From Bisporella sp. PMI_857 (lineage: Eukaryota > Ascomycota > Leotiomycetes > Helotiales > Helotiaceae): a DNA stretch of 64,000 nt. Both the position numbers and the translations under genes were made by a program. Of this stretch, positions 1 through 20,998 are shown piece after piece. The stretch lies in NCBI GenBank assembly GCA_021307315.1, contig JAJSPD010000022.1:310001-374000 (forward strand), in the 5' to 3' direction. Position 1 is the first letter of the stretch, and every line of letters starts with the position of its first letter. A model generated the notes under the pieces. That model was not told the DNA's origin. It saw nothing but the letters and a program-made list of their open reading frames with translations, and searched no databases.

Positions 1-1131
1 TCAATTGCAGAGCTAACTCGGCTAACTGCCCAATTAGTCCAAGATCAGAACAGACGCCGACCCGCTGTGGATCCGTTGCATCACCAAGATGAAACGCCAC
101 GTTCCAGAGCTTCAAGCTTGCGACAACTATCAAGGGATGGTTCTCCACACGGAGCCAGCCATTCAAACCACTCTCAGGATCAGCCACAAAGAACTCCTGA
201 CGCTGATCAGACCTCTACCCTCTCTCGCCCTAGAAAGACGGAGCTGACGGAAAAGATAGATCCCCTAGACAAAGGAGATAGTCCTACTTACCATCAATGG
301 GAAGCTTCTATCCGGGATCGTTTAGTAGTCAACTCTGACCACTATCCGACAATTCATTCTCAAAGAGCTTTAGTGTGGGGAGCAACCAAAGGACGGGCCA
401 AAGGATACTTGGAAGACATTTACTTGTCTGAAGAAGGTTTCAACAACGCGGAAGAGATGTTAGAGCTTTTGGCTACTTACTATCTGACCGGGCATGAAAC
501 AGAGGAAGCGCGGAACGAGTTTCATGATATGAGGATGGGAAGCGCTAGCTACGCTGGTGAAACGTTCCCCCAGTTCAAGGCCAGATTCCTCAGTCTAGCT
601 ACCAAAGGAAAGATAAGCAAAGCGGAATGGTTCTCCTTTATGTGGACCAAAATATCGAACTCCCTCCGACTCGCCTCCGTGGGTTTCAAGCACCAATGGA
701 AGGGAGATTTCACGGAGATGATACACGCTTTGACAGCTATTGACATGGAGACTCGTAGAATCGCTCAGCTGAACACTTTCTACACCAAAAGAGCTTACAA
801 AACGGAAAAGCCAACTGCGGAAAAACCTTCATCAACACCAAAAACTTCGGTTGTAGCTACCACGGGTGCACGGAACCCTGGATCGGGTACTTATCCCTTC
901 CGACACAGATCTTCTACCCCTGCTGGAAAAACTTCTGCTACTCCTTACTCTACCGACTCGCCCAAGGCAACAACAGAGAAGACGTGTTTCAAGTGCGGAA
1001 AGCCTGGACACTTCGCCAATGAATGCCCACAAGGACCTGCGATCAGAGAGATTGTCGGAGAGGATGCGGAACAGGAAGGACTAGTGGAGGATGAAGAGCA
1101 TGGAGATCAAGAGGAAAACGACGAGGCCTAG
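1..1131 (+). CDS. Gag polyprotein, 5'-truncated by the window
   Basis: Capsid/nucleocapsid protein that packages the retrotransposon RNA in the cytoplasm. The frame is open from base 1. The first internal Met at 67 is not the real start: the related copy at 15449 (minus) starts 84 residues before the residue encoded at base 1. A zinc knuckle (CFKCGKPGHFANEC, C-X2-C-X4-H-X4-C) lies at about 985-1026, followed by an acidic tail. The middle (about 270-800) matches the Ty3/gypsy gag type in layout and in alignment with the copy at 13833-15449. Gag stops at 1131 and pol opens in another frame at 1182, so pol expression needs frameshifting, reinitiation or a separate start. Domain order is seen; the function is known for the family. 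Confidence 0.9.
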   Translation, partial: SIAELTRLTAQLVQDQNRRRPAVDPLHHQDETPRSRASSLRQLSRDGSPHGASHSNHSQDQPQRTPDADQTSTLSRPRKTELTEKIDPLDKGDSPTYHQWEASIRDRLVVNSDHYPTIHSQRALVWGATKGRAKGYLEDIYLSEEGFNNAEEMLELLATYYLTGHETEEARNEFHDMRMGSASYAGETFPQFKARFLSLATKGKISKAEWFSFMWTKISNSLRLASVGFKHQWKGDFTEMIHALTAIDMETRRIAQLNTFYTKRAYKTEKPTAEKPSSTPKTSVVATTGARNPGSGTYPFRHRSSTPAGKTSATPYSTDSPKATTEKTCFKCGKPGHFANECPQGPAIREIVGEDAEQEGLVEDEEHGDQEENDEA

Positions 1132-5325: not shown

Positions 5326-5900
5326 CTACTCAGTTGCAGGATCCTCCCCCTCCGCCGGATCCTCCACCTCTCCCTCATCCTCGTCCTCGTCCTCATCCTC
5401 ATACGGGTTGGTAGCCCGGGGAGGACTCACCCGACCACCCTTCCGCCCTTTTCCCTTGGTGACACGACCGGTGGCACGCCGGGCGGCAGCTATGCTGGCC
5501 GCGAGGCCTGCACCGCAACCACAATCTTCTTGAGCTCATAGAGCTCCTGAATGGGGTCAGACCGAGTTCGGATAGGATACGGACGACTTACCATTGACAT
5601 GTCCGCCACTTCGGGCCGGAGAGCACGAGTCTCCTCCAACAATGCAAAGCTCATGTCGAGCTGCGTCCTAGGCATAGACGCCGAACTAACCGACACGATC
5701 TCATCTAACGCTGCTGCCGCAGCACTGATTTGTACACCTTGTGCTACCTGAAGGGCAGCAAATTTGGTGGAAACGTACCACGGGATCTATACCAAAAGTG
5801 AACAAAAAGGAGATACGGATAGGATTCGGGACTTACGGGCACGCAGAGAGCATTCTGTGCAGTACAATGACGACAATTCTTTGATGAGGGCCGACTCGCC
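5326..5900 (-). CDS. Antisense spliced accessory ORF of the gypsy element (Cys-rich, acidic tail)
   Basis: Read on the minus strand, opposite to gag-pol. A first exon segment ending at 5837 carries a C-X2-C-X6-C motif (NCRHCTAQNALCVP). A GTAAGT...TTCAG intron of 89 bp follows (5748-5836), then exon 5592-5747 (Ala-rich, then a helical stretch around LLEETRALRPEVADMSM). A second GTAAGT...TTCAG intron of 45 bp follows (5547-5591), then a last exon to the stop at 5326 with a basic patch and an Asp/Glu run ending DPATE. One base-level frame break is needed near 5500-5515, so this copy may be slightly damaged. The other family copy (9150-9715, plus strand) keeps the cysteines, both introns at the same length and the same ending. 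No 5' start is assigned. Function unknown; it may be a captured host gene or an antisense regulator. Confidence 0.45.
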
Positions 5901-5931
5901 TCATTTCGAAGCTTGAGGACAAGCTTCCTCT

Positions 5932-5942
5932 AAGAAGGGGGG
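5932..5942 (+). other. Polypurine tract
   Basis: Purine run aagaagggggg ends 3 bases before the 3' LTR, the expected place for the plus-strand priming site of an LTR retrotransposon. Confidence 0.7.
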
Positions 5943-5945
5943 TAA

Positions 5946-6205
5946 TGTAACAACCGGTATGCCCAAGGTGCGGCACGAAGGTCATGGCACAGGAGCAAAG
6001 GATGGCGATCAGGGTATGAGGGGTTTCAGAGCCGATACGGGGGAGAGTTGGAGTCGCCTACATAAAGGGCCTGCTCCCACTCTCTACCGTGGTTCCTCAT
6101 GTTTTTGTATCCTTCGTAGGTAGACCTATAAGGCAATCACTATCAGCCTATTGTACGCACTCCCATATGCCTCTATTCTAGCCCGTGATTCCTTGCGTCG
6201 TTACA
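5946..6205 (+). repeat. 3' LTR of element 1 (260 bp)
   Basis: Begins TGTAACAACCGG and ends CGTCGTTACA. It aligns along its length with the LTRs at 8424-8684 and 15795-16055 (both inverted) and with the solo LTR at 60153-60401. Confidence 0.95.
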
Positions 6206-7728
6206 TCGGCCAGCGAGCTGTAAATTAGAAAAGAAGCGTTTGCTCCGGTATCGATAAAGCCGGAAGTGCTGTAACAATATCCATTCTTTATTAAACTACA
6301 AGAAATTGTAAAAGCATCTCCGCCTATAAAGCGACGTAAGTCGAGAATAGCACGATTTTTATCCTTTCTTTTAGTACGCTCTAAGAAAAAGACTTTTCTC
6401 AAAGCTCTTCTTTTCCCGACTTTTCCTCATTTTCCGAGCTTAAGCTAAGCGACTCTGGTCTTGCAAAGTCCTCCGCTAGGCCTAAAAAGCTCAGCTCCAG
6501 GAGCTTTAGCGCTGTGTCTGGCTTGCGCGGCAAAAGACAGCCTGTAGCGTAATGGCCTGGTTCTCCGCAGTTGTAGCATGTGTTTGCAGCTGCTACTTTT
6601 AGAGTTGACGAGCGTTCTTTGCTTAAAAAGGCCGAGCTTTGACAAGCTGGAAATGAAGTGGCGGCGGTTAGACTTTTGCTCGGCTTTTAGCTTTTCCGAA
6701 ATGTGCTAGCAACAGCTTGAAAAAGAGATTGCCGAGATGAAAATTGCTGAAAAGATTGCCGAGCTTAGCGAGTACAAAGCCGCTGCTTGGCTGTAGCCGA
6801 GTCCTGGTACACACCGTAAGCCAGGCTGCAAAAACTAGCAAAAGTAAGTTTTGTTGATCGACGGATAGGAGCTAGTTGTAATTGAAAGCTCGGCTTTAGC
6901 TTCTGGAACATGTCTTCTTGCCGCTCCGAAACTGGGATGTTAGCTTTATTTGCACAAAAAAGAAACCTGTGCTTAAACTTAGCGAAACTTTCTGAATTTG
7001 TCATGTAAAGCTTGTAGTATTCCTTCCGCTGCTCGATTTGCTCGTTAGCGTCGACTATGCCCATAATAAGCGTTTCGAGCATTTCAGCCACTGTTGTGTA
7101 GCGTATAGGCGACAAATGGCTCATTCTGTTCTCCAAAAAGCTTTGAGCTAGGCCTGTTGTTCCCCGAAATACGTACTCCAACTTGTTTTGCTCTGTTTCG
7201 AACATTTTGAAGTAACGCCGGAAAAAGCCGAACAGCTGAATCTCCCAGCTCTTGTATGTAGGATTTATTCCGTCGTCGAGCTCCTGAATATCCCTGACAC
7301 GAGCAAAGGTAGAAAAATAAGCGGAGCGTAGCGTCTCCACCGTTAGTTCCCGCTCTACCGTACGGAAAAGAGTGTCCGAGCTTAAAAGCTGAATAAAGAG
7401 TGATTCCGAAGTAAACCTGCTTCCTGTTGCTAACTGTTTTTCAGGTCGACGAACTGCGCAGCTTGTAGTCGAGCTTGCTTTTTGCTGGTGGCCAGCTTTT
7501 CTTGTATTTGCTGTAAAGTGGCCTGTATTGCTATCATAGCAAAGTTCTCAGAAAATAATAGTCCTGCTTCGTCGCTTTAAAGGAAGCCGGGGTTTTGAGC
7601 ATGTAGTGCTCCCGAAATAGTTGCTGCTGCTTTGCCCTTAGCACCGCGTCGTGTGCCTGTAAAATCAGCCATTGTCGTGCTTGTAACAAAATAACAAAAT
7701 AAATAGAATAACAAAATAAGTAAATCAA
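6206..7728 (-). pseudogene. Remnant gag and protease of a second Ty3/gypsy element, cut by element 1
   Basis: On the minus strand: a short N-terminal Gag-like reading near 7690, a 191-codon Gag capsid ORF (6765-7340), a zinc knuckle in another frame (C-X2-C-X4-H-X4-C, TCYNCGEPGHYATGC, about 6537-6578), and a retropepsin start (GFIDTGAN, about 6230-6262) that runs straight into the LTR end at 6205. The rest of its pol would lie beyond the window start, on the far side of element 1. Frames are broken between segments, so this copy is dead. Order and strand show that element 1 inserted into it. Confidence 0.75.
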
Positions 7729-8423: not shown

Positions 8424-8684
8424 TGTAACGACGCAAGGAATCACGGGCTAGAATAGAGGCATATGGGAGTGCGTACAATAGGCTGATAGTGATTGCCTTA
8501 TAGGTCTACCTACGAAGGATACAAAAACATGAGGAACAACTGTAGAGAGTTGGAGCAGGCCCTTTATATAGGCGACTCCGACTTTCCTCCGTATCGGCTC
8601 TGAAACCCCTCATACCCTGATCTTCAGCCTCCTGATCCCGTGCCATGGCCTCCGTGTCGCACTTTGGGCATACCGGTTGTTACA
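8424..8684 (-). repeat. 3' LTR of element 3 (261 bp)
   Basis: TG...CA ends, inverted relative to element 1. Followed by the reverse-complement polypurine tract (ttaccccctttct). Confidence 0.95.
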
Positions 8685-9149
8685 TTACCCCCTTTCTAGA
8701 GGAAGCTTGCCCTCAAGCTTCGAAATGAGGCGATTCAGTGCTGGTTCGGTGTGGTTTCGGTGTAGGAGTGGTTTATCGGTACTACAATACTAAGCGAACG
8801 CGGAAAACAATAGGAACTCACAACAATAGTAACGCTTGTGAGTTACTACTTTCAGTCAGATCCTATTCAGAATCACTTTTGTATTGTTTCTATTTACAAT
8901 GAGTTCTTTGTGGGCCCTTAAATTATAAATATCCGCTTTTTTCTCAACTTTTTCCAAGCAACGACCACCACAACTATCACCGTAAGTAGTACTGTTCAAA
9001 GAGGCTTCGGCATGAATTCTCAATATTGATGCTTCGCAGATCATGCTTTTACTTACTTTTTCCGGTGCGTTGGCTGCGGCTTACTGTGTGTGCTGTCTCC
9101 GCTGCTTTCGGGCAAAAAAGAAGAACGAGGGGCACTAATGCTCATTTGA

Positions 9150-9715
9150 TCGGCCTTTATCAAAGAAGTGTGGTTATTGTACCGTACAGAATGCTTTTTG
9201 CGTACCTGTAAGTTCCGAATCTTATCCGTATTTCCTACTTGTTCACTTTTGGCATAGATCTCGTAGTACGTTTCTACCGAATTTGCTGCTTTTCAGGCAG
9301 CACAAAGTGTACAAGTCCGTGCTGCGGCAGCAGCGTTAAATGAGATTGTGTCGGTTGGTTCGGCGTTTATGCTCAGGACGCAGCTCGACATGAGCTTTGC
9401 TTTGTTGGAGGAGACTCGTGCTTTTCGGTCTAAAGTGGCGGACATGTCAATAGTAAGTCGTTCATATTTTATCCGAATTCGGTCTGACTTTATTCAGGAG
9501 CTTTATAAACTCAAGAAATTGTGGTTGCGGTGCAGGCTTTCGTGGCCAGCATAGCTGCTGCTCGGCGTGCCACTAGTCGTGTCACTAAGGGAAAGGGCGG
9601 AAAGGGGTCGGGTGAGTTCTTTCCGGGCCACTAACCCGTACGAGAATAAGGACGAGAATGAAGGAAAAGGTGGAGTGGAAGATCCGGCGGAGGGGAGGAT
9701 TTTGCAACTGAGTAG
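9150..9715 (+). pseudogene. Second copy of the gypsy antisense spliced ORF
   Basis: Counterpart of 5326-5900. The C-X2-C-X6-C motif is kept with changed neighbours (KCGYCTVQNAFCVP, ending 9207). The intron 9208-9296 (89 bp), exon 9297-9452, intron 9453-9497 (45 bp) and last exon to the stop at 9713-9715 match element 1 in position and length, with GTAAGT and TTCAG retained. The last exon is frame-broken and many codons carry transitions, so it is called a pseudogene. Retention of both introns in two diverged copies supports a real spliced transcript in the ancestor. Confidence 0.45.
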
Positions 9716-9987
9716 GGAAGTGTTAGGCCTTGTTTCGGAAGGCAAGTCGGCACTTTCGTGGTATAAACTTCGACAATACTTATTCACGAGAGTAGTTCCT
9801 TGTAACGAAATCGGTCTAGTGTTATTGGAGAGTTTATATCGCAAAGATCGTTAATTTGGGCCTTGGATCAGAAAGTATTAGATTTGCTAATTGAATTGCT
9901 TTGCTTGTGTTATGTTTGTACCGTAGTCTGTAACTATAATCTGAAGTGAAATGAGGTCGGAGAGTTGTCGAAGGGGATTCGGTATTG

Positions 9988-12900
9988 CTACGCCCGATCA
10001 TTTGCTAAGTGATTATAATTTTTCTGGCCAGACTTTTAAGCTGTAATTTACTTTGCAAGCTTACGAAAGGGCTTGGCAGTTGAGGGTTATTTGCATGGAA
10101 GTCGCGGATTTTGTGCGGTGAACTTATAAAGTTGGAGGCAGAATACTATTCTGGGTCCGGATCGTGGCCGACTTAGCTTACTTGATATTTCAGAACGTTC
10201 CTGATTTTGCGTACCGCTTTAATATTTTCGACTTTCTATTTCTTTTTTCCAGCAATCAGCTCTGCTTCTGGCTTAGGGTTTTTTTGGCCGGTAACGGATT
10301 GTCTGGATTTTAGTTAATACGTCGAGTGAAAAGACGTTATGGATATTGGATTTAGCAGGCAAGGCAAGTTTGTAAGCGTTGCTTACTTGTTCGGTAATTT
10401 CAAAAGGACTTATTTACTGTTCGGCTAGCTTTCGGCTAAGCTTATAGTTCTTCAGGTTTTTGGTCGACAAGTAGACTTTATCCGTAACTTTCTAGTCGAT
10501 GGCTTTTCGGTGCTTGTTTACCGAACGAGACATGCGTTCTTGAGTTTTAGTATATTTGCTTTGGCTAACTTTTATGATTTTTTATGCGTTTAGCCAGTTT
10601 CCGTGCATTTTCGTAATTGAGTTTTTTTAATAAAGTGTTGGCTTTTGGTGTATTTTAGTTTTAGCTCGTTTTAGAGTCAAGTCCGAACTTGAGCCGGTAC
10701 GGTGCTATTTTAATAAAAGAGTGCGGAAAAGTTATTTGTGCTTTGTCAATTATAAGGAGCAGTTCGCTCTAGTTGTTTTAATAGTAATTGACAAAAGGTC
10801 GGAGTTTTTGATCGATATATTTGTTTATGATTTCGGTTTGGCCGTTTGTTTGCTTGTGGTAAGCAGTCGAGAACTTGATTTTAACTCTAATAATTCTACA
10901 AAACTTATTCCAGAAAGAAAATACAAATTGAGGACTTTTATCAAAAACTATCGACTCCGAAGTGTGTTCGAATCGATATATCTACTGAAAAAAAAGAGTT
11001 GCTACGCTACGGACGTCGATATTTTTGTGACAAAGAATCGTTACCGCGTCTTTTTCTAATCGATCAATAAAGACTAGAATAGTGTCGAAGCCGTGCTTAT
11101 TTTTAAAGAACTTTTTGAAGTTTATGCAAAAGTGCTGCATCGGGTATGCGGGCACCGGTAAAAGTGTAATAGACTTTGTTGCTTAGTTTAGTTAAAGTGG
11201 CTGCTTTGCAATCTTTACAATTTGCAACATATCGCTTACAGTCCGTACTTATACCGACCCAGTAGTACTTTAAAGCAAGCAACTGATAAGTTTTAGTTTC
11301 ACTTGAATGTGTGCTAAAAAGTTGACTATGCGCTTCCTGAATAAAGCGAGTACAGAAAAAGTGTCTCGAAGCACACACAGTTTTCTTTGTGTAGTAGCAG
11401 CTCGTTTTCGATGTAATAACTTTTAGGTAAAGTTTTTCGTAAGTCAAAAAAGACTCACGGTTGACTTGTCGTAGTTTGGTTACTAATTTCACGGAGTTTA
11501 AGGCAGGTTTCGGGAGGTTTCGGGGTTTAAAAAAGATATGTCTATAGTAGACATATATAACTCGGCCAGTTCGGCATTAATTTGAGAATCGAAGCGACTA
11601 GGTCCGAGAAGCACTTTAGAACGGCTGTTTTTTTTGGCTTTTTCCTGGCAGCTACGTTTTGTTTTTTCGGCTGAAAATATCAGCTTTAAAGTTGTTTTTG
11701 CTTGACGTATACATAATTTTGAAGTTGAAGTCAAAAAAGAACTTTATTTAGCGTACTTGTTTAGTTGTAAGCACTTTAGTCGTTATGAAGTATTCCAATA
11801 ACTTGTAATTCGAGTAGACGCTGACTTGGCTCTGAACTGATATAAGCTCGGGTCGCTACTTGCGAAATGCTTTACAATAACGTATAGCTTTTTGTCGTGG
11901 ATTCTTAGTTTACTTTATAACTTGACAAAACGTGCGAATAAAAGCCGACAGAGTACTATTGGCTTTGAGAGTGTTTTTGAAAAATACACTAGCTATGACT
12001 TCGTTTGAGGAATCCGTTTTTAGCTTCGTAGGAGTTCGGGGTCGAAGTAGTGAAAAGCTTGAGCGGCCAGCAAGCTTTTTCGCAAATCTCGAACGCTTGA
12101 TTACACTTTTTCGACTACACAACGGTTTCGTAAAGCGTGTGATTGTTGTTAGTGGTTTAGCTATTAAGCCGAAATTGCGAATAAACTGTCGGTAAAATCC
12201 GCAAAATCCTAGAAAAGACTTTACACTTGTAACGGTAGTAAGTCGTGCTTAGTTCCGCAACGGCTCAGTTTTATTAGGATTTACTTCTAGTTTTTAGTCG
12301 TTAAGATGTATTTAAATATTAGTTTTCGTACGTGAACTCGCATTTAACAATGTTGGCTTGAGTCCGGCATCTCGAAGTTTTTGCAACACTTTTTTAACGT
12401 GTTCGATATAAGTAGTAAGTTTTCGGAATAAATGAAATATGTCGAGGTATACTATGCAAAAGTTATTTAATATTCATAAACGTGTTTATGTATGCTAATA
12501 CGTAGCAGTCTATTAGTAAAGCTAAAAAGTAGCACTTTGCACTTGTAAATCCGTAGCAGTTCTAAACGTTGTGTATTTTTTAGACTTAAGTTTATTCGGA
12601 TTCTGTAGAAAGCTTGACGGATGTCGAGCTTTGTGAATATTTTAGTTTTTGATACTCGGCTCAACAATTCGTTAATCTTAGAATAGAGTAAAAGTCGTTT
12701 CGGGTCAAAGCATTAAGCTTTCGGTAGTCGATGCAAAAACGCAACTACTGTTAAGCTTTTTGACGAATAAGACAAAAAACGCGAAAAAGCTTTTGCTGTA
12801 GCTATAAAACTTTTGCTTAAGTGCTTAGCAAATACTTTTTTACCGTTTTTAGCTTTTTCGCGGATTGTCGGTACAAAGAAGAAAAATAGCTGAGCAAAAA

Positions 12901-13773
12901 AGCTTTCAACTGGATTTTGTGTTATACGGGCGATAAAAAAGTAGCTTGTTGATGCTATTTTAGAGAATACGTTTTAAACAAATTATACAATCTTAGTAGT
13001 CTGAGACGGATTTGTTGTTCGGTTTTTATATTTTTGCAGCTTTTAATTCTTTAATATCCGATTTATTTCGTATAGGCTAGTTTAGAAAACTTAGTGCTAC
13101 TTGATTTTATGTTAAATGTAGCGCGTTAGCGCTAATTTGGCAAATGTCGACTATTTTAGAAAGCTTTGGAATTGTGCTTTTACTTTTTTTTGAGTCGGAG
13201 AGTTTTCGTATAGATTCGGAAAGCTCGGAATACAGAGTCCGGATAGTGCTATTAGAATAAACGTGATTTTTTTTTCGCCGCACTTTTTTACTTTTAGCGC
13301 TTGATTTTTTCTGTTTGCATTACTTAGTATCGCTATAACTGTTAATAAGTTTCCGGGATTTATAAAGATTATTAGTTCTTAGACTACAATTGGTCGGAGT
13401 ATTCGGAAAGCTAAATAAGTCGACTTCGAGCTAAGTTTAATTTGATCTTGAAATGACTTAACTATTTGTTACTGATAATAGCGTTTTGATTTCTCAGGTC
13501 AGAATCACAAAAGGCAATTGTATATCGCCGACTATAATAGTCAAGTGTAAGCGAATGTATTGAGACACGCGACTAGATATTTTTTTTGAAATTTTTGATT
13601 GCACGAAGTAGAGTAGTTGTCGGATAAAGTGCTAAAAGCATTAGATAAACGAATTGCAAAAGACGATTTATGAAAAGTAACTATTTGCTTTGTGTTTGCT
13701 AACGAGTGCAATGAAATTCCAGTTTTATTTATGCTAAGCTGGCAAAAAACTAAAAACTGTTTTTTACTTATCA
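9988..13773 (-). pseudogene. Decayed pol of element 3
   Basis: Aligns end to end with pol 1182-5054 but is shattered. Recognisable pieces are RT (12467-12667, LSRVSKTKIFTKLDIRQAF), RNase H and integrase zinc region (11103-11492) and the integrase core (about 10700-11060). Differences from element 1 are mostly C-to-T and G-to-A on both strands, with a few 1-bp deletions (for example near 11160). Not functional. Confidence 0.9.
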
Positions 13774-13832
13774 ATTTTGTCAAGTCCAGCTTTGACAGAT
13801 CACATTTGCGTAGCCTAGAAACGAGCTTTTGC

Positions 13833-15449
13833 TTAAGCCTCGTCGTTTTTTTTTGATTTTTATGCTTTTTATTTTCCACTAGTTTTTTTTGTTCTGTTCG
13901 TATCTTTTCCGACGATCTTTTTGATCGCAAGTTTTTGTGGCATTTATTAGCAAAGTGTCCAGGCTTTCTGCACTTAAAACACGTTTTTTTGTTGTTGCTT
14001 TGAGCGAGTCGGTAAAGTAAGTAACAGAAGTTTTTTAGCAAGAGTAAAAGATTTGTGTCGGAAGAATAAGTACTCGAACCAGGGTTCCGTGCTCTGTGTA
14101 GTTACAGCCGAAGTTTTTGGTGTTGATAAAAGTTTTTCCGCAGTTGGCTTTTTCGTTTTGTAAGCTTTTTTGGTGTAGAAAGTGTTCAGCTGAGCGATTT
14201 TACGAGTTTCTATGTTAATAGCTGTCAAAGCGTGTATTATTTCGTGAAATCTCTTTTTTATTGGTGTTTGAAACCCACGGAAGCGATTCGGAGGAAGTTC
14301 GATATTTTGGTCACATAAAAGAGAACTATTTCGCTTTGCTTATTTTTCTTTTGGTAGCTAGACTGAGGAATCTAGCTTTGAACTGAGGGAACGTTTCACC
14401 AGCGTAGCTAGCGCTTCTATTTTTATATTATGAAACTCGTTCCGCGCTTTTTTTGTTTTATGCCCGGTCAGATAGTAAGTAGCTAAAAGCTTTAATATCT
14501 TTTTCGCGTTGTTGAAACTTTCTTTAGACAAGTAAATGTTTTTCAAGTATCTTTTGGCTCGTCTTTTGGTTGCTTTTTACACTAAAGCTTTTTAAGAATG
14601 TGTTGGTATCACTCTCTGTGATACCTTCTTCGTATTGATGACTTGCAATAGCTTAAGTCGGTTACCCACGGGCACGTAGCACCGCGATCTCAGCGCAGTG
14701 CTATATATGCTCGTTGTAGGTGGTTGACTTGTTCTTGATTGTTCTAAGTTACGTCCTACGAGCGAGAACTTAAATACATTCAGGTGGTGGCCTGTGCGTC
14801 ATGGAGCGTTCACATGACTTTATACCAACAGAATGAATTGTCGGATAATGGTCAGAGTTGACTACTAGGCGATTTCGGATAGAAGCTTTTTATTGATGGT
14901 AAGTAGGACTATCTTTTTGTTTAAAGGATTTATTTTTTCCGTCAGCTTCGTTTTTCTAAAGCGAAGGAGAGTAGAAGTCTGATTAGCGTCAGGAGTTCTT
15001 TGTGGCTGATCCCGAAAGTTGTGAGAATTGTTTGAATAGCTAGTTCCGTGTGGAGAACTATTTTTTGATAGTTGTCGCAAGCTTGAAGCTCTGGAACGTA
15101 GCGTTTTATTTTAGTGATGCAACGGATCTACAGCGAGTCGGCGTCTGTTTTGATCTTGGACTAATTGGGCAGTAAGCCGAGTTAGCTCTGCAATTGAGTT
15201 TTGCAAAGCAAGGAACTCCGCGCGATTGTCCTGCTGTATGCGTTCCGCGTCGCTTGCTTTTGTTTCCAATGATTGAATAATGCCGCGCATTTCATCAGGA
15301 TTGCTGTAGTTGCGAAGATCTCGCGCACGTTGAGTTGTACGGGATCTAGATGAAAAGGGCATTTGAGTAGAGGTTGACTTTCTTGTAAAAGTCTGACTGT
15401 CCTGCGCTCCGTCGGCTGAAACGTAGTCCTGTGGTTGTGATGCCGACAT
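13833..15449 (-). pseudogene. Decayed gag of element 3, N-terminus preserved
   Basis: The first 112 codons (15111-15449, starting MSASQPQDYV) are intact and show the true start of this Gag family. After a stop at codon 113 the rest is in pieces: 14865-15080, 14358-14546, 13974-14228 and the altered zinc knuckle CFKCRKPGHFANKC near 13940-13985. Acidic residues have become Lys/Asn throughout, as expected from G-to-A change on the coding strand. Confidence 0.88.
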
Positions 15450-15794
15450 AATGACCTATGTCGGTGGGGATTCGGTGGTGAGTATGAGGTGTATAGAAGA
15501 ACAAGTTTCCGGTTAGCCTGTTGCTGCCTGTCTTTTGTCCGCAATTTCCTTTGCGCAAAGAGGGTTCTTGAAGGATCTCTGATATTCTTTTTGACGTCTT
15601 CACGACGATTTTTACTGGCTGTACGCGCTGAACCAAACCCAGGCTTACCAGCTGTCCGAGAGATCTCTGGAATCTCGGCTATTTGAGGATATCTGATATG
15701 ACTTGCACCGAATCAGGTCCGGTATAGTAGAATAAACTCGAAAATGGGATATTATAAAGAGGCCGTCCCCGGCTGACTTGATGTTTTTGTATAA

Positions 15795-16055
15795 TGTAAC
15801 GACGCAAGGAATCACGGGCTAGAATAGAGGCATATGGGAGTGCGTACAATAGGCTGATAGTGATTGCCTTATAGGTCTACCTACGAAGGATACAAAAACA
15901 TGAGGAACAACTGTAGAGAGTTGGAGCAGGCCCTTTATATAGGCGACTCCGACTCTCCTCCGTATCGGCTCTGAAACCCCTCATACCCTGATCTTCAGCC
16001 TCCTGATCCCGTGCCATGGCCTCCGTGTCGCACCTTGGGCATACCGGTTGTTACA
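15795..16055 (-). repeat. 5' LTR of element 3 (261 bp)
   Basis: Same ends as the 8424 copy. Followed by the second CTTGT target copy (16056-16060). No convincing tRNA primer-binding site was identified just inside it. Confidence 0.95.
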
Positions 16056-16435: not shown

Positions 16436-17381
16436 CTAAGAAATATCACCATCCTCATCTAGTCTACTAGCCTCCTCCGCATATAACTCCGCCAGCTGGG
16501 CATGGTGGTTCGAGATTTCTTTGTGATGCTTTGCAATTTGATGCATACGTTCTGCACGAGAACGACGGGGAACTCGAATTTGACCTGTAGTCTCAGCTTA
16601 CAGGTGAAAATCATTAGTTACAAGCTACTAAAATGTATATACCAAGTGTAAACTTACGAGCAACCCGGCTACGAGGTACCGAAGATATATTAATAGGAGC
16701 AATACGCCGAAGAGGACGAGCAGGAGAACTTCCAGTGGCCGAAGGAGCAACAGGAGCAACAGGATCAGCAGCTGCAGCTGCATTTACGGCCGCGGCAACT
16801 GTAGCAGCTGTAGCTTGACCACCTACGGGTCCGTAACGTTAGTTATAAATCGAAAAGCAAAGAAAACAACTCGTAAACTTACGAAGACTGCACCGGATTC
16901 CTTCATTATTATAGTGGCAATTGGCACAACTACCCCCGAAATACCCATTTACCGTAACACAAGCAGCCCAAACTCCAGCCGGCCGAGCGCGAGTACAGTG
17001 TTTACAGCCTGTAGCCTCTTCCTCTCCAACTATATGACCTAATAGCGCCTCTATATTTGAAGGGCGACCTGTATTGGCAGACCGATTCGGGCGCAAAACG
17101 GGATTTCGAACAGTTGGCATAGCAGCCAGAGCAACCATAACGGCGGTAGGGTGAGCCGGAAGAGCAGGTTTCGGGTCTAATACAGTTAATAATGATATAA
17201 TCAATCTAAACAACACCCGTAAGCTTACTGTAGCTATCGATCTCTTCATCTTCGTCTTCATCTTCATCTTCATTTTATCACCACCAAGCCGAACTTGAGT
17301 TGGAACAACAGGAACAAAGTTTCCATCTTTATCTTCTTCCTCAGAATAGTAAAATGGGGAATTTGTAAGAGGAGGAGGCAT
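16436..17381 (-). CDS. Helitron passenger gene, four exons, DUF3716-like Cys motif
   Basis: Exons 17229-17381, 16883-17176, 16658-16822 and 16436-16584. Introns of 52, 60 and 73 bp all start GTAAG and end AG; the middle one has an AACTAAC branch site. Exon 2 encodes two cysteine clusters (GCKHC...AAC and SCANC...RC), the pattern I associate with fungal DUF3716 proteins. Exon 3 is Ala-rich then basic, and exon 4 ends in a helical, acidic tail. The last three exons join in one frame (phase 1). Exon 1 joins only if read in the frame giving an Asp/Glu run, which needs one extra base near 17273, so a 1-bp deletion may have broken this copy. Role in the Helitron unknown. A separate transcript is inferred from the introns. 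Confidence 0.6.
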
Positions 17382-17639: not shown

Positions 17640-18896
17640 TCAAAAGGGCTTTCGAAAAGCAAACTGTTTAAAGTTTTCACCCGTGAAACCGCAATATATG
17701 AAAGGCCGATACAGTGCTCTTTTTGATTTAAGTTTAGTACAACTTGAGAGAGAGTTAATCCCTGACTTTTGTGAACTGTAATAGCGTAAGCAAGCCGTAA
17801 AGGAAACTGGGTCCGTGAGCAAAAAACGCTTTATAATCATAAGTATGAAAAGAAGGTAAAATAGGAACAACTCCGGGCGGACAGCTTGGAAAATCCGGGC
17901 CGGTATAAGTGTCAAAACGAATAAGCAATACCGAAGGCATAGCTGTAAGAGGCGTTGCACCCGTAGACCAAGATATATCAACAATAGTTCCCATAGAGCC
18001 GTTGACCAAGCTATGTTCGGTCCATAAATTGGCTGTAAGCATAACACGAGCGTTAATACACACGTAAAGTTTGATGACAGGTTATCGGCCTCTTTTCTGT
18101 AGCTCGAGCAGCATTGCGGCCGGTATGTCGAGCTGTGATCTTGATTACGGGCTGTTGTAATCCCGCTAAAGAAGTAAAGTTCCGTTCCGCGACTTCGTTC
18201 TTAGTGTAATAGAGCCGCAAAGCAGTCGCAAAACTTTGGACTTCGGGCGCGGAAAGCGTATTTGCTACGCGTGTACAAAGCAGTTCCCAGCTAGCAATTG
18301 ACAACTGAGAAACCCGTAACTCACTTAAAACAGCCCGAAACCTGGTTGAAAGATCGTCTTTCCTTGTTGCCGCATAACCTGAGTTAGTCGAAGAGATCGA
18401 TCAAAAGCTCGATATAAGTACTGGCCTTTAATGGCATGAGGCTCAGTTTGAACAGCCGAAACATATAATGGCTTTCTCCTACAGGCGGCAATTGAAAGAA
18501 ATCTTACACAACAGAATGTTTATACCTCCGAAAGGAAGTGTCGTGAAGGAAAAATCGCCCGTAAACGATCGTCAATCAGCGACAGAGTTTTCAAGTTATT
18601 ATGGATTTTTCATCAATAATTAGAAATTGACAATCCCGAAACCGACTTTGTAAAGCCTGTAAAGTCGACGTACTAATATCAGATCCTTTGCTTTTGACTG
18701 GAAGCTGAAGTAAACTATGTAATGTCTGGCCCGTAATATTGAAAGCTGCTACACCTGTAGGAGCACTTCGGAATACCGGATCACTTTTTCCGGCTTCGAT
18801 TGCAAGCTCTAGAAGGCGAGCACAGATTTTCAACAGTGTATACGTCTTTCCGGACCCGGCAACGCCATCCACATTTAATAGTAGTTGAGAAGGCAT
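17640..18896 (-). pseudogene. Helitron Pif1-type helicase domain, broken
   Basis: C-terminal half of RepHel, which unwinds DNA during rolling-circle transposition. Walker A (GVAGSGKT) lies near 18840-18870, followed by a Walker B-like LIIDEKS, then broken segments 18053-18304 and 17755-18063. The latter holds the helicase signature VNGSMGTIVDI. Several frame changes and stops separate the pieces. Confidence 0.8.
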
Positions 18897-19705
18897 AGGC
18901 CTCCTAGTGCTGCTGCACTGAGCTCGTGAGCGTACTGAGAAACAACTGTATTGTAAAGCTTCAGCTGCTCCGCATTTAAAGTTTCGGGCGAAGAATCAAC
19001 CGTAACAACTTGTGCAGCCTGATTATCATCCTTAAACTGCTTCCATATATCCGGGCTTATATTGCAGCGACCGATATGTGCAGACCAGTCATATTCCCGA
19101 TCAAGTAAACGTTGACCCAGCCCAGTAGTGTCGACTTGTGAAAGATCATGACCTGGGCGCCGGCGAGCTAAAAGCTCAAATTCATTTAATAGAGCATCGT
19201 CTTCTTCTTCTGAATCTAGCTCAATATACTATCATCGGACTCTGAGTCTTCGTCAGATACCGGGTCGGTATAGTAGTCCGAGGGATGAGAATGCGCCTGT
19301 ACACAGGCCGAAAACGCGTCGCTGTAAGACCCGTAAACTTGCCCGTCAACCGAAAGTAAGTATCCCATTCTGTAAAAGGATGGTGCAGCATGAGTTTTAC
19401 TCGGCAATAGTCTGTATACTCAGGCGAGGCTGGGTGGCTTGAATATCGTGGATAATAGTTAATAACACGAAGCTTAGCTCGAGGCCGGCGTAACACTTGA
19501 TCCAATCCCAGCCCTGTAAACACTCAAACAAAGAAAGATTAACAAGCGCAAGATCGACCGAATCCTGACGCCGTTCTCGATATCGCCGTAAAGTAGAACG
19601 CTGTGCGGAAACTTCTCCAGATTCAAGAAATATCAAATCTTTCTGTTGCTTTCCGGGCGGCAGTCAAGATTTACAACTTGCCGGGTGGATTCTTGCACCG
19701 GCAGC
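18897..19705 (-). pseudogene. RepHel linker between Rep and helicase, frame-broken
   Basis: Three overlapping short frames (19216-19407, 19221-19523, 19397-19636) continue one another with small shifts. No catalytic motif seen. Confidence 0.5.
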
Positions 19706-20998
19706 TTAATAGGATATGAGATACCTTTGAGCAGACCAGTCACGTTCCCCAATTAGCTTATTAAGCAACCGAGAAACAAAAGACAGCAAAGGAGCGCGGT
19801 CATTAATATAAGGAAGAATTTGGGCCTGAAGCTCTGTATATGACACCGAAGACTTTTCGGCTTTCGAAACGTATTTCCCTAAATAAGATAACACTGCGTG
19901 AATTGTAACAGGCGGCTGAATATCGGTATTGGCCAACCAGCCTAGCGTGATTACAGGTGCTACCTGGTTCAGAATAGCATGGTTTCGGGCGGGAGAAAAA
20001 ATCAAATCTTTGTGGTTGATATCTTTAGTTACTACCGCAGTGTCGAATAGAGGTCTCGGGAAGAAAAACCGACAAGTTGGAGGAGCTAACGAGCCTTTTT
20101 TCGCCCGTAAACAGTAGCTCTGGGTACAAGTGCTGTGGCGTTGAAGGCGATTAATTAAAGCCGTAAATTGATCTGCGGTGTTTTCTACATCCGCAAACGC
20201 AAGAGACGCTGGATTCCGAGCATCCGGAAGCCGTGCTTGATTCGGGTTTTCTGCTGTAATTCGCGCGCCCCAGTATTGAGCAAATTCCTCTAGTCTTACA
20301 GGCGTAACTGGGTCAAGTTGAGGTGCGTCTGGGATCCAAAACAGTCCGTGAAAGTGGCCCGACCCGCGATCTTGCCATTCAGAACGATCCCACGCATCCG
20401 TAAACCCCAGAAATGGCTTAACAACGTGCTGTACAAAGGCGGTAAACCGAATGTAAAGGTAGTGGGCGATAATATGAGGGCATGCCTGAACACTGTCCCA
20501 TATCCATTTCCGTACTACGATTTCATTACCTGTAGGAAGCTCGTTTCGGCCCGGCAAGTGACGGTGTAGGTCATCCCATTGCATATCAGCCGAACTAAAC
20601 GTAAGGAAAACAGGTGCTGCGTCAGAGCTAAGAAATCGAGCTTGAGCCTGTAAAGCATTGCTTCGATTTCTCCAGAATGGGCGTGTGCCGGTTAAACAGC
20701 TACCTTGACGAACAATTTGAGGCAGGATATGATCCGAATTGTTGACCAACGTTTCTACCAGCTCTTCACGGGTAAGATCTTTGGTTTCCGGGTGCTTAGA
20801 AACATAAAACCGGGCCGATTTGCTAGCTTTTCGCCGCATCAGAATATTGAAAACCAAAAACCGCCAGCGAGGGTGCTGGCCAAATCTGCCATCCTTATAG
20901 CAGAGTAAATGCCGCGCATACTCCGCCAGGCTGACTTTACGGATCCGTGAAGCGTTGAACTCTGCGCGGCCGGTAGGATAGAGAGTTGGAAAAGCCAT
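19706..20998 (-). pseudogene. Helitron Rep (HUH nuclease) domain
   Basis: 430 open codons. It has the Helitron-like N-terminal region, an HUH motif (GHFHGLFW, about residue 214) and the paired catalytic tyrosines YLGKY near 370-374, which nick and join DNA ends. The ORF ends just after RDWSAQ, a conserved Helitron stretch that normally continues; the following bases carry it on in two other frames. The Rep chemistry residues are intact, but the full RepHel protein is not encoded. Confidence 0.85.

What the first reader, a model, noticed from the sequence alone, without database searches (positions are those of the whole stretch)
5326..5900. Spliced antisense gene inside a Ty3/gypsy element, kept in two copies
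On the strand opposite gag-pol, between pol and the 3' LTR, an ORF with a C-X2-C-X6-C motif, a helical segment and an Asp/Glu tail is interrupted by two GTAAGT...TTCAG introns of 89 and 45 bp. The decayed copy (9150-9715) has the same introns at the same lengths and keeps the cysteines while much of its surroundings mutated. LTR elements replicate through RNA, so introns can persist only if they lie antisense to the genomic RNA. That fits an accessory gene transcribed from its own promoter, possibly a regulator or a captured host gene.
Basis: partly seen in the sequence, partly recalled or inferred. Interest (0 to 1): 0.8.

Follow-up and report, generated by a model that had tools for sequence, protein, structure and literature searches.

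The report
Spliced antisense gene in fungal retrotransposons
A fungal jumping element carries, on its opposite strand, a small gene that appears to have introns and probably makes a zinc-binding regulatory protein; a gene of this kind was already reported in a grey-mould fungus, and the copy first pointed out is itself broken.

Summary
Real, but known in kind and misdrawn. Between pol and the 3' LTR of a Ty3/gypsy family lies an antisense, intron-containing gene. The copy pointed out (5326-5900) is a remnant: a deletion of about 414 bp removed the candidate promoter, the start codon and half of a six-cysteine cluster, and a one-base shift breaks exon 3. The complete layout survives in 10 of 15 genomic copies, among them the decayed window copy (8924-9715); two copies (L012, L014) have an uninterrupted 193-aa frame. 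Introns are 58 (leader), 50 (not 89) and 45 bp. A second, distinct gypsy family in the same genome carries a related three-exon gene with identical cysteine spacing. Relatives occur in Pseudogymnoascus; the genome is inferred to be Bisporella sp. PMI_857. The same position and strand are published for brtn of Boty-like elements (Zhao 2011, not held). DUF3716 is not met; this window's DUF3716 gene sits beside Helitron ORFs. The remnant copy has identical LTRs and open gag and pol, so it jumped recently without an intact gene of its own: the gene is dispensable or supplied in trans. Most likely role, inferred only: an HBZ/GENE23-like nuclear regulator.

The parts
67..1131 (+). gag-like ORF of copy A, uninterrupted 354 codons, zinc knuckle
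   Evidence: zf-CCHC 33 bits
1182..5054 (+). pol ORF of copy A, uninterrupted 1290 codons: protease-like, RT, RNase H, integrase, Tf2-1-like SH3
   Evidence: scanned in three pieces; the protease match RVP_2 is just under its cut-off, 19.6 against 20.3 bits
5326..5546 (-). exon 3 remnant of the antisense gene in copy A (basic stretch, then Asp/Glu tail); one base short against 11 of the other 14 copies, so out of frame after exon 2
5547..5591 (-). intron 2, 45 bp, GTAAGT...ATTCAG (a multiple of three, open in copy A, so retention is possible)
   Evidence: family 2 has an intron at a nearby place
5592..5786 (-). exon 2 (IPWYV..., helical segment, LLEETRALR)
5837..5893 (-). exon 1 remnant of copy A: second half of the cysteine cluster (C-x2-C-x6-C-V-P); 5' part and start codon deleted (upper border approximate)
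5931..5942 (+). polypurine tract next to the 3' LTR (approximate, by eye)
   Evidence: sequence
5946..6206 (+). 3' LTR of copy A, 261 of 261 bases identical to the 5' LTR just upstream of the window; 5-bp target duplication TCGGC read by eye
8424..8684 (-). 3' LTR of copy B (copy B lies on the minus strand)
8924..8931 (+). TATAAATA, candidate TATA box of the antisense gene, copy B; present in 10 of 10 copies that keep the leader
8982..9039 (+). leader (5' UTR) intron, 58 bp, copy B
9043..9207 (+). exon 1, copy B: ATG and full six-cysteine cluster (one RIP-type stop inside)
9208..9257 (+). intron 1, copy B, 50 bp
9258..9452 (+). exon 2, copy B (stop in place of the Trp of IPW)
9453..9497 (+). 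intron 2, copy B, 45 bp
9498..9715 (+). exon 3, copy B, frame broken
15795..16055 (-). 5' LTR of copy B, 99.2% identical to its 3' LTR (2 mismatches in 261)

Best explanation
It looks like, and most likely is, a brtn-type antisense accessory gene of Ty3/gypsy elements. In intact form it lies between pol and the polypurine tract/3' LTR, is read opposite to gag-pol, starts from its own internal TATA promoter, and is spliced three times (58-bp leader intron, 50-bp and 45-bp coding introns). It makes a protein of about 193 aa: a six-cysteine cluster (C-x2-C-x11-C-x9-C-x2-C-x6-C), a helical middle, a basic stretch and an acidic tail. Most likely mechanism (inferred): a nuclear zinc-cluster protein that acts on the element's own transcription or chromatin, as HBZ does for HTLV-1 or as proposed for GENE23 of Grande. 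Introns survive replication because the genomic RNA carries them in antisense, where they are not splice sites. Copy A in the window belongs to a recently jumping sublineage that lost the gene and lives without it or on protein made by other copies. Shown: position, strand, open frame and splice-site pattern, conservation in two element families and other fungi, loss in copy A. Inferred: promoter use, transcription, splicing, zinc binding, nuclear role, trans supply.
For: Uninterrupted 193-codon frame in L012 and L014 once GT-AG introns are removed, 2 of 15 copies. Intron 1 borders: in 6 of 6 relatives whose models run on past CxP (P0002, P0003, P0005, P0006, P0007, P0009) the next residue is V, as GT demands, and in 5 of 5 of these that reach [LI]P the residue before it is Q, as CAG would give; 19 of 21 Pseudogymnoascus models in A5 go straight from the last-cysteine region to LPWF/LPWY. 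Family 2: all seven loci share a 47-bp intron 1, GTAAGT at both donors and the six Cys; intron 2 is 60 or 47 bp in the five of seven translated. A public gene model, P0030, agrees with my intron 1 acceptor and with both ends of intron 2; it is inferred to come from this same genome, so it is an independent model, not an independent species. Six Cys invariant in the 8 proteins of A3. TATAAATA in 10 of 10 leader-bearing family 1 copies, 119 bp before the ATG in L012; TATAAATA or TATAAGTA 84-105 bp before the ATG in five family 2 loci, inside the element and outside the LTR. dN/dS 0.22-0.29 between the two family 1 sublineages over 154-156 shared codons (four pairs), 0.15 for family 2 L024 against L028. 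Antisense brtn in Boty-like elements of Botrytis and Sclerotinia.
Against: No RNA data. The 45-bp intron is a multiple of three and open in copies such as L012 and L014, so it could be retained; read-through models place intron 2 at the same residue in P0002 and P0024 but about four residues earlier in P0005 and P0012, and P0006 shows no GT there (by eye). L012 has lost one motif cysteine; only L014 is open with all six. Full motif in 20 of the 39 proteins returned; some of the other 19 are fragments, others have lost cysteines, such as P0007. L012 against L014 shows dN/dS 0.75 over the shared part and 0.49 over all 193 codons, on few changes; RIP biases all these ratios. A sublineage with identical LTRs, open gag and open pol lacks the gene, so it is not needed in cis. 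No Pfam match above its cut-off; only weak matches, mostly to the acidic tail of family 2. The model is of low confidence (mean pLDDT 64) and has no Foldseek match at E under 0.001.
Confidence: 0.6

Rival explanations
1. The antisense RNA itself is what matters: it pairs with genomic RNA and feeds silencing or tunes copy number; the ORF is secondary.
For: Transcript-level roles are proposed for antisense regions of plant elements (PMC7264820 passages). The candidate promoter points towards pol.
Against: Purifying pattern in codons between sublineages and in family 2, conserved cysteines and frame-keeping introns in two families and other fungi point to a protein.
Confidence: 0.15
2. A captured host gene, derived from the DNA-binding region of a fungal Zn2Cys6 transcription factor.
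For: The CxxC...C...CxxC-x6-C order resembles Zn2Cys6 (recalled); the UniRef name of one relative, P0017, begins Zn(2)-C6 fungal-; the low-confidence models put short helices after each CxxC.
Against: The first loop is 11-12 residues against 6 in the canonical motif (recalled); no Zn_clus match for family 1 or 2 at E up to 10; three protein queries of this genome found no clear relative outside the two element families (one weak match, C189:136933, E 0.017, not examined).
Confidence: 0.2
3. A decaying passenger with no present function for the element.
For: 13 of 15 copies give no open full-length frame; the youngest sublineage deleted the 5' half, and its member copy A has identical LTRs with open gag and pol. 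Absence of the start of brtn is also reported for one Botrytis consensus, P26.1 (PMC8365987 passage).
Against: Conservation in two families and other genera; dN/dS well under 1 between sublineages.
Confidence: 0.2

Closest known systems
brtn of Boty-like retrotransposons (Zhao et al. 2011, Virology 417:248; known here only through citing papers)
   Same: Additional antisense gene between pol and 3' LTR of a Boty-like element in Botrytis and Sclerotinia; its 5' part is absent from one Botrytis consensus, as in copy A here
   Different: Cannot be compared by sequence here; whether introns, cysteine cluster or promoter were described for brtn is unknown to me
GENE23 of maize Grande and other aORF-3R genes of plant elements (PMC7264820, passages)
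   Same: Antisense, between pol and 3' LTR, promoter upstream of the gene, nuclear protein in Grande
   Different: Plants; no similarity tested; the word intron does not occur in that review
HBZ of HTLV-1 (PMC10186651, passages)
   Same: Spliced antisense retroelement gene encoding a small regulator; a works-like comparison only
   Different: bZIP protein, promoter in the 3' LTR; here a candidate internal promoter and a cysteine cluster
DUF3716 (PF12511)
   Same: Small cysteine-rich fungal domain, in this window also next to a mobile element
   Different: No match to the model; the DUF3716 gene at 16839-17381 is separate and sits beside Helitron ORFs

Membership tests
brtn-type antisense gene | antisense to gag-pol, between pol and 3' LTR of a Ty3/gypsy element | tested here: met
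   family 1; family 2: (pol recognised by eye in six of seven loci)
brtn-type antisense gene | sequence homology to BRTN | not testable with these tools
   Zhao 2011 not held; no record named Botrytis among the listed hits
brtn-type antisense gene | transcribed | not testable with these tools
   no RNA data
DUF3716 (PF12511) | match to the Pfam model | tested here: not met
   not among matches at E up to 10 for families 1 and 2, P0002, P0003, nor at E up to 1 for ten relatives; 0 of 12 genome matches lie at these genes
Zn2Cys6 zinc cluster (PF00172) | Pfam match and canonical loop lengths | tested here: not met
   no such Pfam match; first loop 11-12 residues; canonical spacing recalled
Zn2Cys6 zinc cluster (PF00172) | binuclear zinc fold | tested here: inconclusive
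   low-confidence model; no PDB match at E under 0.001; VIA-align rows cover mainly residues 100-167
HBZ-like antisense retroviral regulator | promoter inside the 3' LTR | tested here: inconclusive
   candidate TATA lies inside the element, outside the LTR; start site unknown
Grande GENE23-type | own promoter, nuclear protein | tested here: inconclusive
   candidate TATA box found; localisation not testable

The most novel reading that the evidence does not exclude
A Leotiomycete family of retrotransposon-borne, multiply spliced antisense genes that encode a new six-cysteine zinc-cluster regulator, shared by at least two separate gypsy families and turned into a common good that deletion-bearing copies exploit in trans.
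Probability: 0.3. Interest if true: 0.65.

Novelty: new member of a known kind. Interest (0 to 1): 0.45.

Why it matters
Antisense accessory genes recur in elements of plants and fungi, but their function is unknown (PMC7264820 passages). A gene model with a conserved cysteine cluster, splice sites and candidate promoter in two families of one fungus, plus a natural sublineage that jumped without the gene, makes need in cis against help in trans testable. It also suggests that some orphan 'hypothetical proteins' of Pseudogymnoascus are such genes, though their DNA context was not seen here.

Tried and rejected

Corrected on the way: intron 2 of family 2 was cut one base short and set right. 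The first dN/dS table included a non-homologous part of exon 1 for copies with the deletion and was replaced. The E-values of P0002 and P0003 and of P0005 and P0010 are inflated because they were in the query alignments.

Full report
What is there. The window is G000:C135:310001-374000 of a 55.6 Mb genome. Copy A runs from a 5' LTR just upstream of the window to a 3' LTR at 5946-6206; the two LTRs are identical over 261 bases, and TCGGC flanks both ends (read by eye). Its gag (354 codons) and pol (1290 codons) ORFs are uninterrupted and carry a zinc knuckle, RT, RNase H, integrase and a Tf2-1-like SH3 domain; the protease match is just below its cut-off. Copy B lies inverted at 8424-16055 with LTRs 99.2% identical and a decayed interior.

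The observation. The region 5326-5900 finds 15 places in the genome (a lower bound). All 15 were fetched with flanks and aligned. Ten (L012, L014-L019, L021-L023) keep a stretch between the polypurine tract and the gene that four others (L009 = copy A, L010, L011, L013) have lost; L020 is truncated. The loss is 414 bp, L012 against copy A. A search with the leader stretch gives the same split: ten places over the whole or nearly the whole query, four that begin only inside it, and one further fragment. The stretch holds a TATAAATA (10 of 10), a leader, a 58-bp GTAAGT...GCAG intron, the ATG and the first half of a cysteine cluster.

The gene model. With introns of 50 and 45 bp removed, L012 and L014 are open for 193 codons; the other 13 of 15 are not. 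L014 has all six motif cysteines, L012 has five. In the six relatives whose protein models read through this intron (P0002, P0003, P0005, P0006, P0007, P0009) the residue after CxP is always V, as a GT donor demands, and Q precedes [LI]P in the five that reach it, as a CAG acceptor would give. Intron 2 is less firm: it is a multiple of three and open in L012 and L014. Counting by eye from the EE of LLEETR, its donor stands after 15 residues in family 1; the read-through models P0002 and P0024 show VS at the same count, P0005 and P0012 after 11, and P0006 shows no GT there.

The tree of the shared stretch (14 copies, L020 left out) groups L009-L011 with L013 (support 1.0), next to L012 and then L014. 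L013 has the deletion but not this gap, so I infer that the gene broke in steps while the lineage went on jumping. Absence of the beginning of brtn is reported for the Botrytis consensus P26.1 as well (PMC8365987, passage).

A second family. The 193-aa protein also finds weak matches elsewhere (seven places, 28-34% identity, E 4e-4 to 9e-3). These seven loci were fetched, and six more after a search with the family 2 protein. In six of the first seven a gypsy pol ORF is seen by eye on the other strand (L026 is cut by its contig end). All seven hold an antisense gene with exon 1 VC[LF]RC..CCSF..KCSRC..KCLP, a 47-bp intron, exon 2 and a second intron; in the five translated that second intron is 60 or 47 bp and an acidic exon 3 follows. 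Of these five, three are open (L024, L025, L028; L025 has a shorter exon 2) and two have a stop. The polypurine tract begins about 350-365 bp before the ATG, and TATAAATA or TATAAGTA lies 84-105 bp before it. Cysteine spacing is C-x2-C-x11-C-x9-C-x2-C-x6-C in both families; the Pseudogymnoascus proteins with the motif have x12 and x8. The six cysteines are invariant in the 8 proteins of A3, but not in wider sets: P0007 lacks one, and 20 of all 39 proteins returned show the full motif, the rest being fragments or changed. Intron 1 sits right after CxP in both families; intron 2 is about five residues further along in family 2, by eye.

Distribution and host. Three protein searches gave 4, 12 and 30 proteins at E up to 1, the last two with query alignments that held some of the earlier hits. 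They are from Pseudogymnoascus destructans and P. sp., from unnamed entries, and P0030 from Bisporella sp. PMI_857. P0030 sits on a contig of 185,844 bases; contig C269 of this genome has the same length and carries L036, whose one-base difference in exon 1 explains P0030's odd peptide. I infer that the window is from Bisporella sp. PMI_857 (Helotiales). P0030's protein agrees with my intron 1 acceptor and with both ends of intron 2.

Selection and decay. Over 154-156 shared codons dN/dS is 0.22-0.29 between the two family 1 sublineages (four pairs), 0.43 for L009 against L013, and 0.75 for L012 against L014 on 13 changes (0.49 over all 193 codons); for family 2 L024 against L028 it is 0.15 over exons 1 and 2. 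Decay of the older copies is RIP-like: in L021, 127 of 128 differences from L014 are C>T or G>A. RIP biases these ratios, so they support rather than prove selection. The motif cysteines are kept in 57 of 60 codons of the ten leader-bearing copies, which are related by descent, so this is weak evidence.

How it may work. The protein has a cysteine cluster, helices at 61-154 of P0013's model, a basic stretch and an acidic tail; both models are of low confidence. A nuclear regulator of the element is the best guess by analogy with HBZ, a spliced antisense product (PMC10186651, passages), and with GENE23 of Grande, which has its own promoter and a nuclear product (PMC7264820, passages). Nothing here shows it.

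What is known. PMC7264820 and PMC8365987 (passages) cite Zhao et al. 2011 for an additional antisense gene, brtn, in Boty of Botrytis and Sclerotinia; PMC5987419 (passage) reports a Monilinia transcript with similarity to truncated Pol and BRTN. The Zhao paper is not held, so I cannot say whether introns or cysteines were described, nor test homology. I therefore file the finding as a new member of a known kind.

DUF3716. The best of the 12 is in this window at 16881-17048 on the minus strand, beside Helitron_like_N and PIF1 ORFs.

Noticed in passing
window 16839-17381 (-), with 18591-20998 (-): A DUF3716 gene (PF12511, 55.6 bits), the best of 12 DUF3716 matches in the genome, lies next to PIF1-like helicase and Helitron_like_N ORFs on the same strand: a Helitron that seems to carry a cysteine-rich accessory gene. 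None of the ten other DUF3716 stretches fetched matched the Helitron ORFs.
   Followed up: partly
window 6178-6402 and 6765-7340 (-): Protease-like (DTGA) and gag-like ORFs, by eye, of another degraded gypsy element; copy A seems to have inserted into its protease region.
   Followed up: no
L024-L030, L033-L038: A second gypsy family with a related antisense gene; L025, L026 and L027 share the same in-frame 144-bp shortening of exon 2. The element context of L033-L038 was not checked.
   Followed up: partly
G000:C135:378298-378510 (L031), 4.3 kb beyond the window end: A fragment of the family 1 leader and exon 1 ends abruptly in unrelated sequence (by eye).
   Followed up: no
window 5946-6206 as query, genome-wide: 40 LTR matches were scored out of 188 candidates, 18 of them 98% identical or more, more than the 15 places of the gene: probably solo LTRs and a recent burst.
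   Followed up: no
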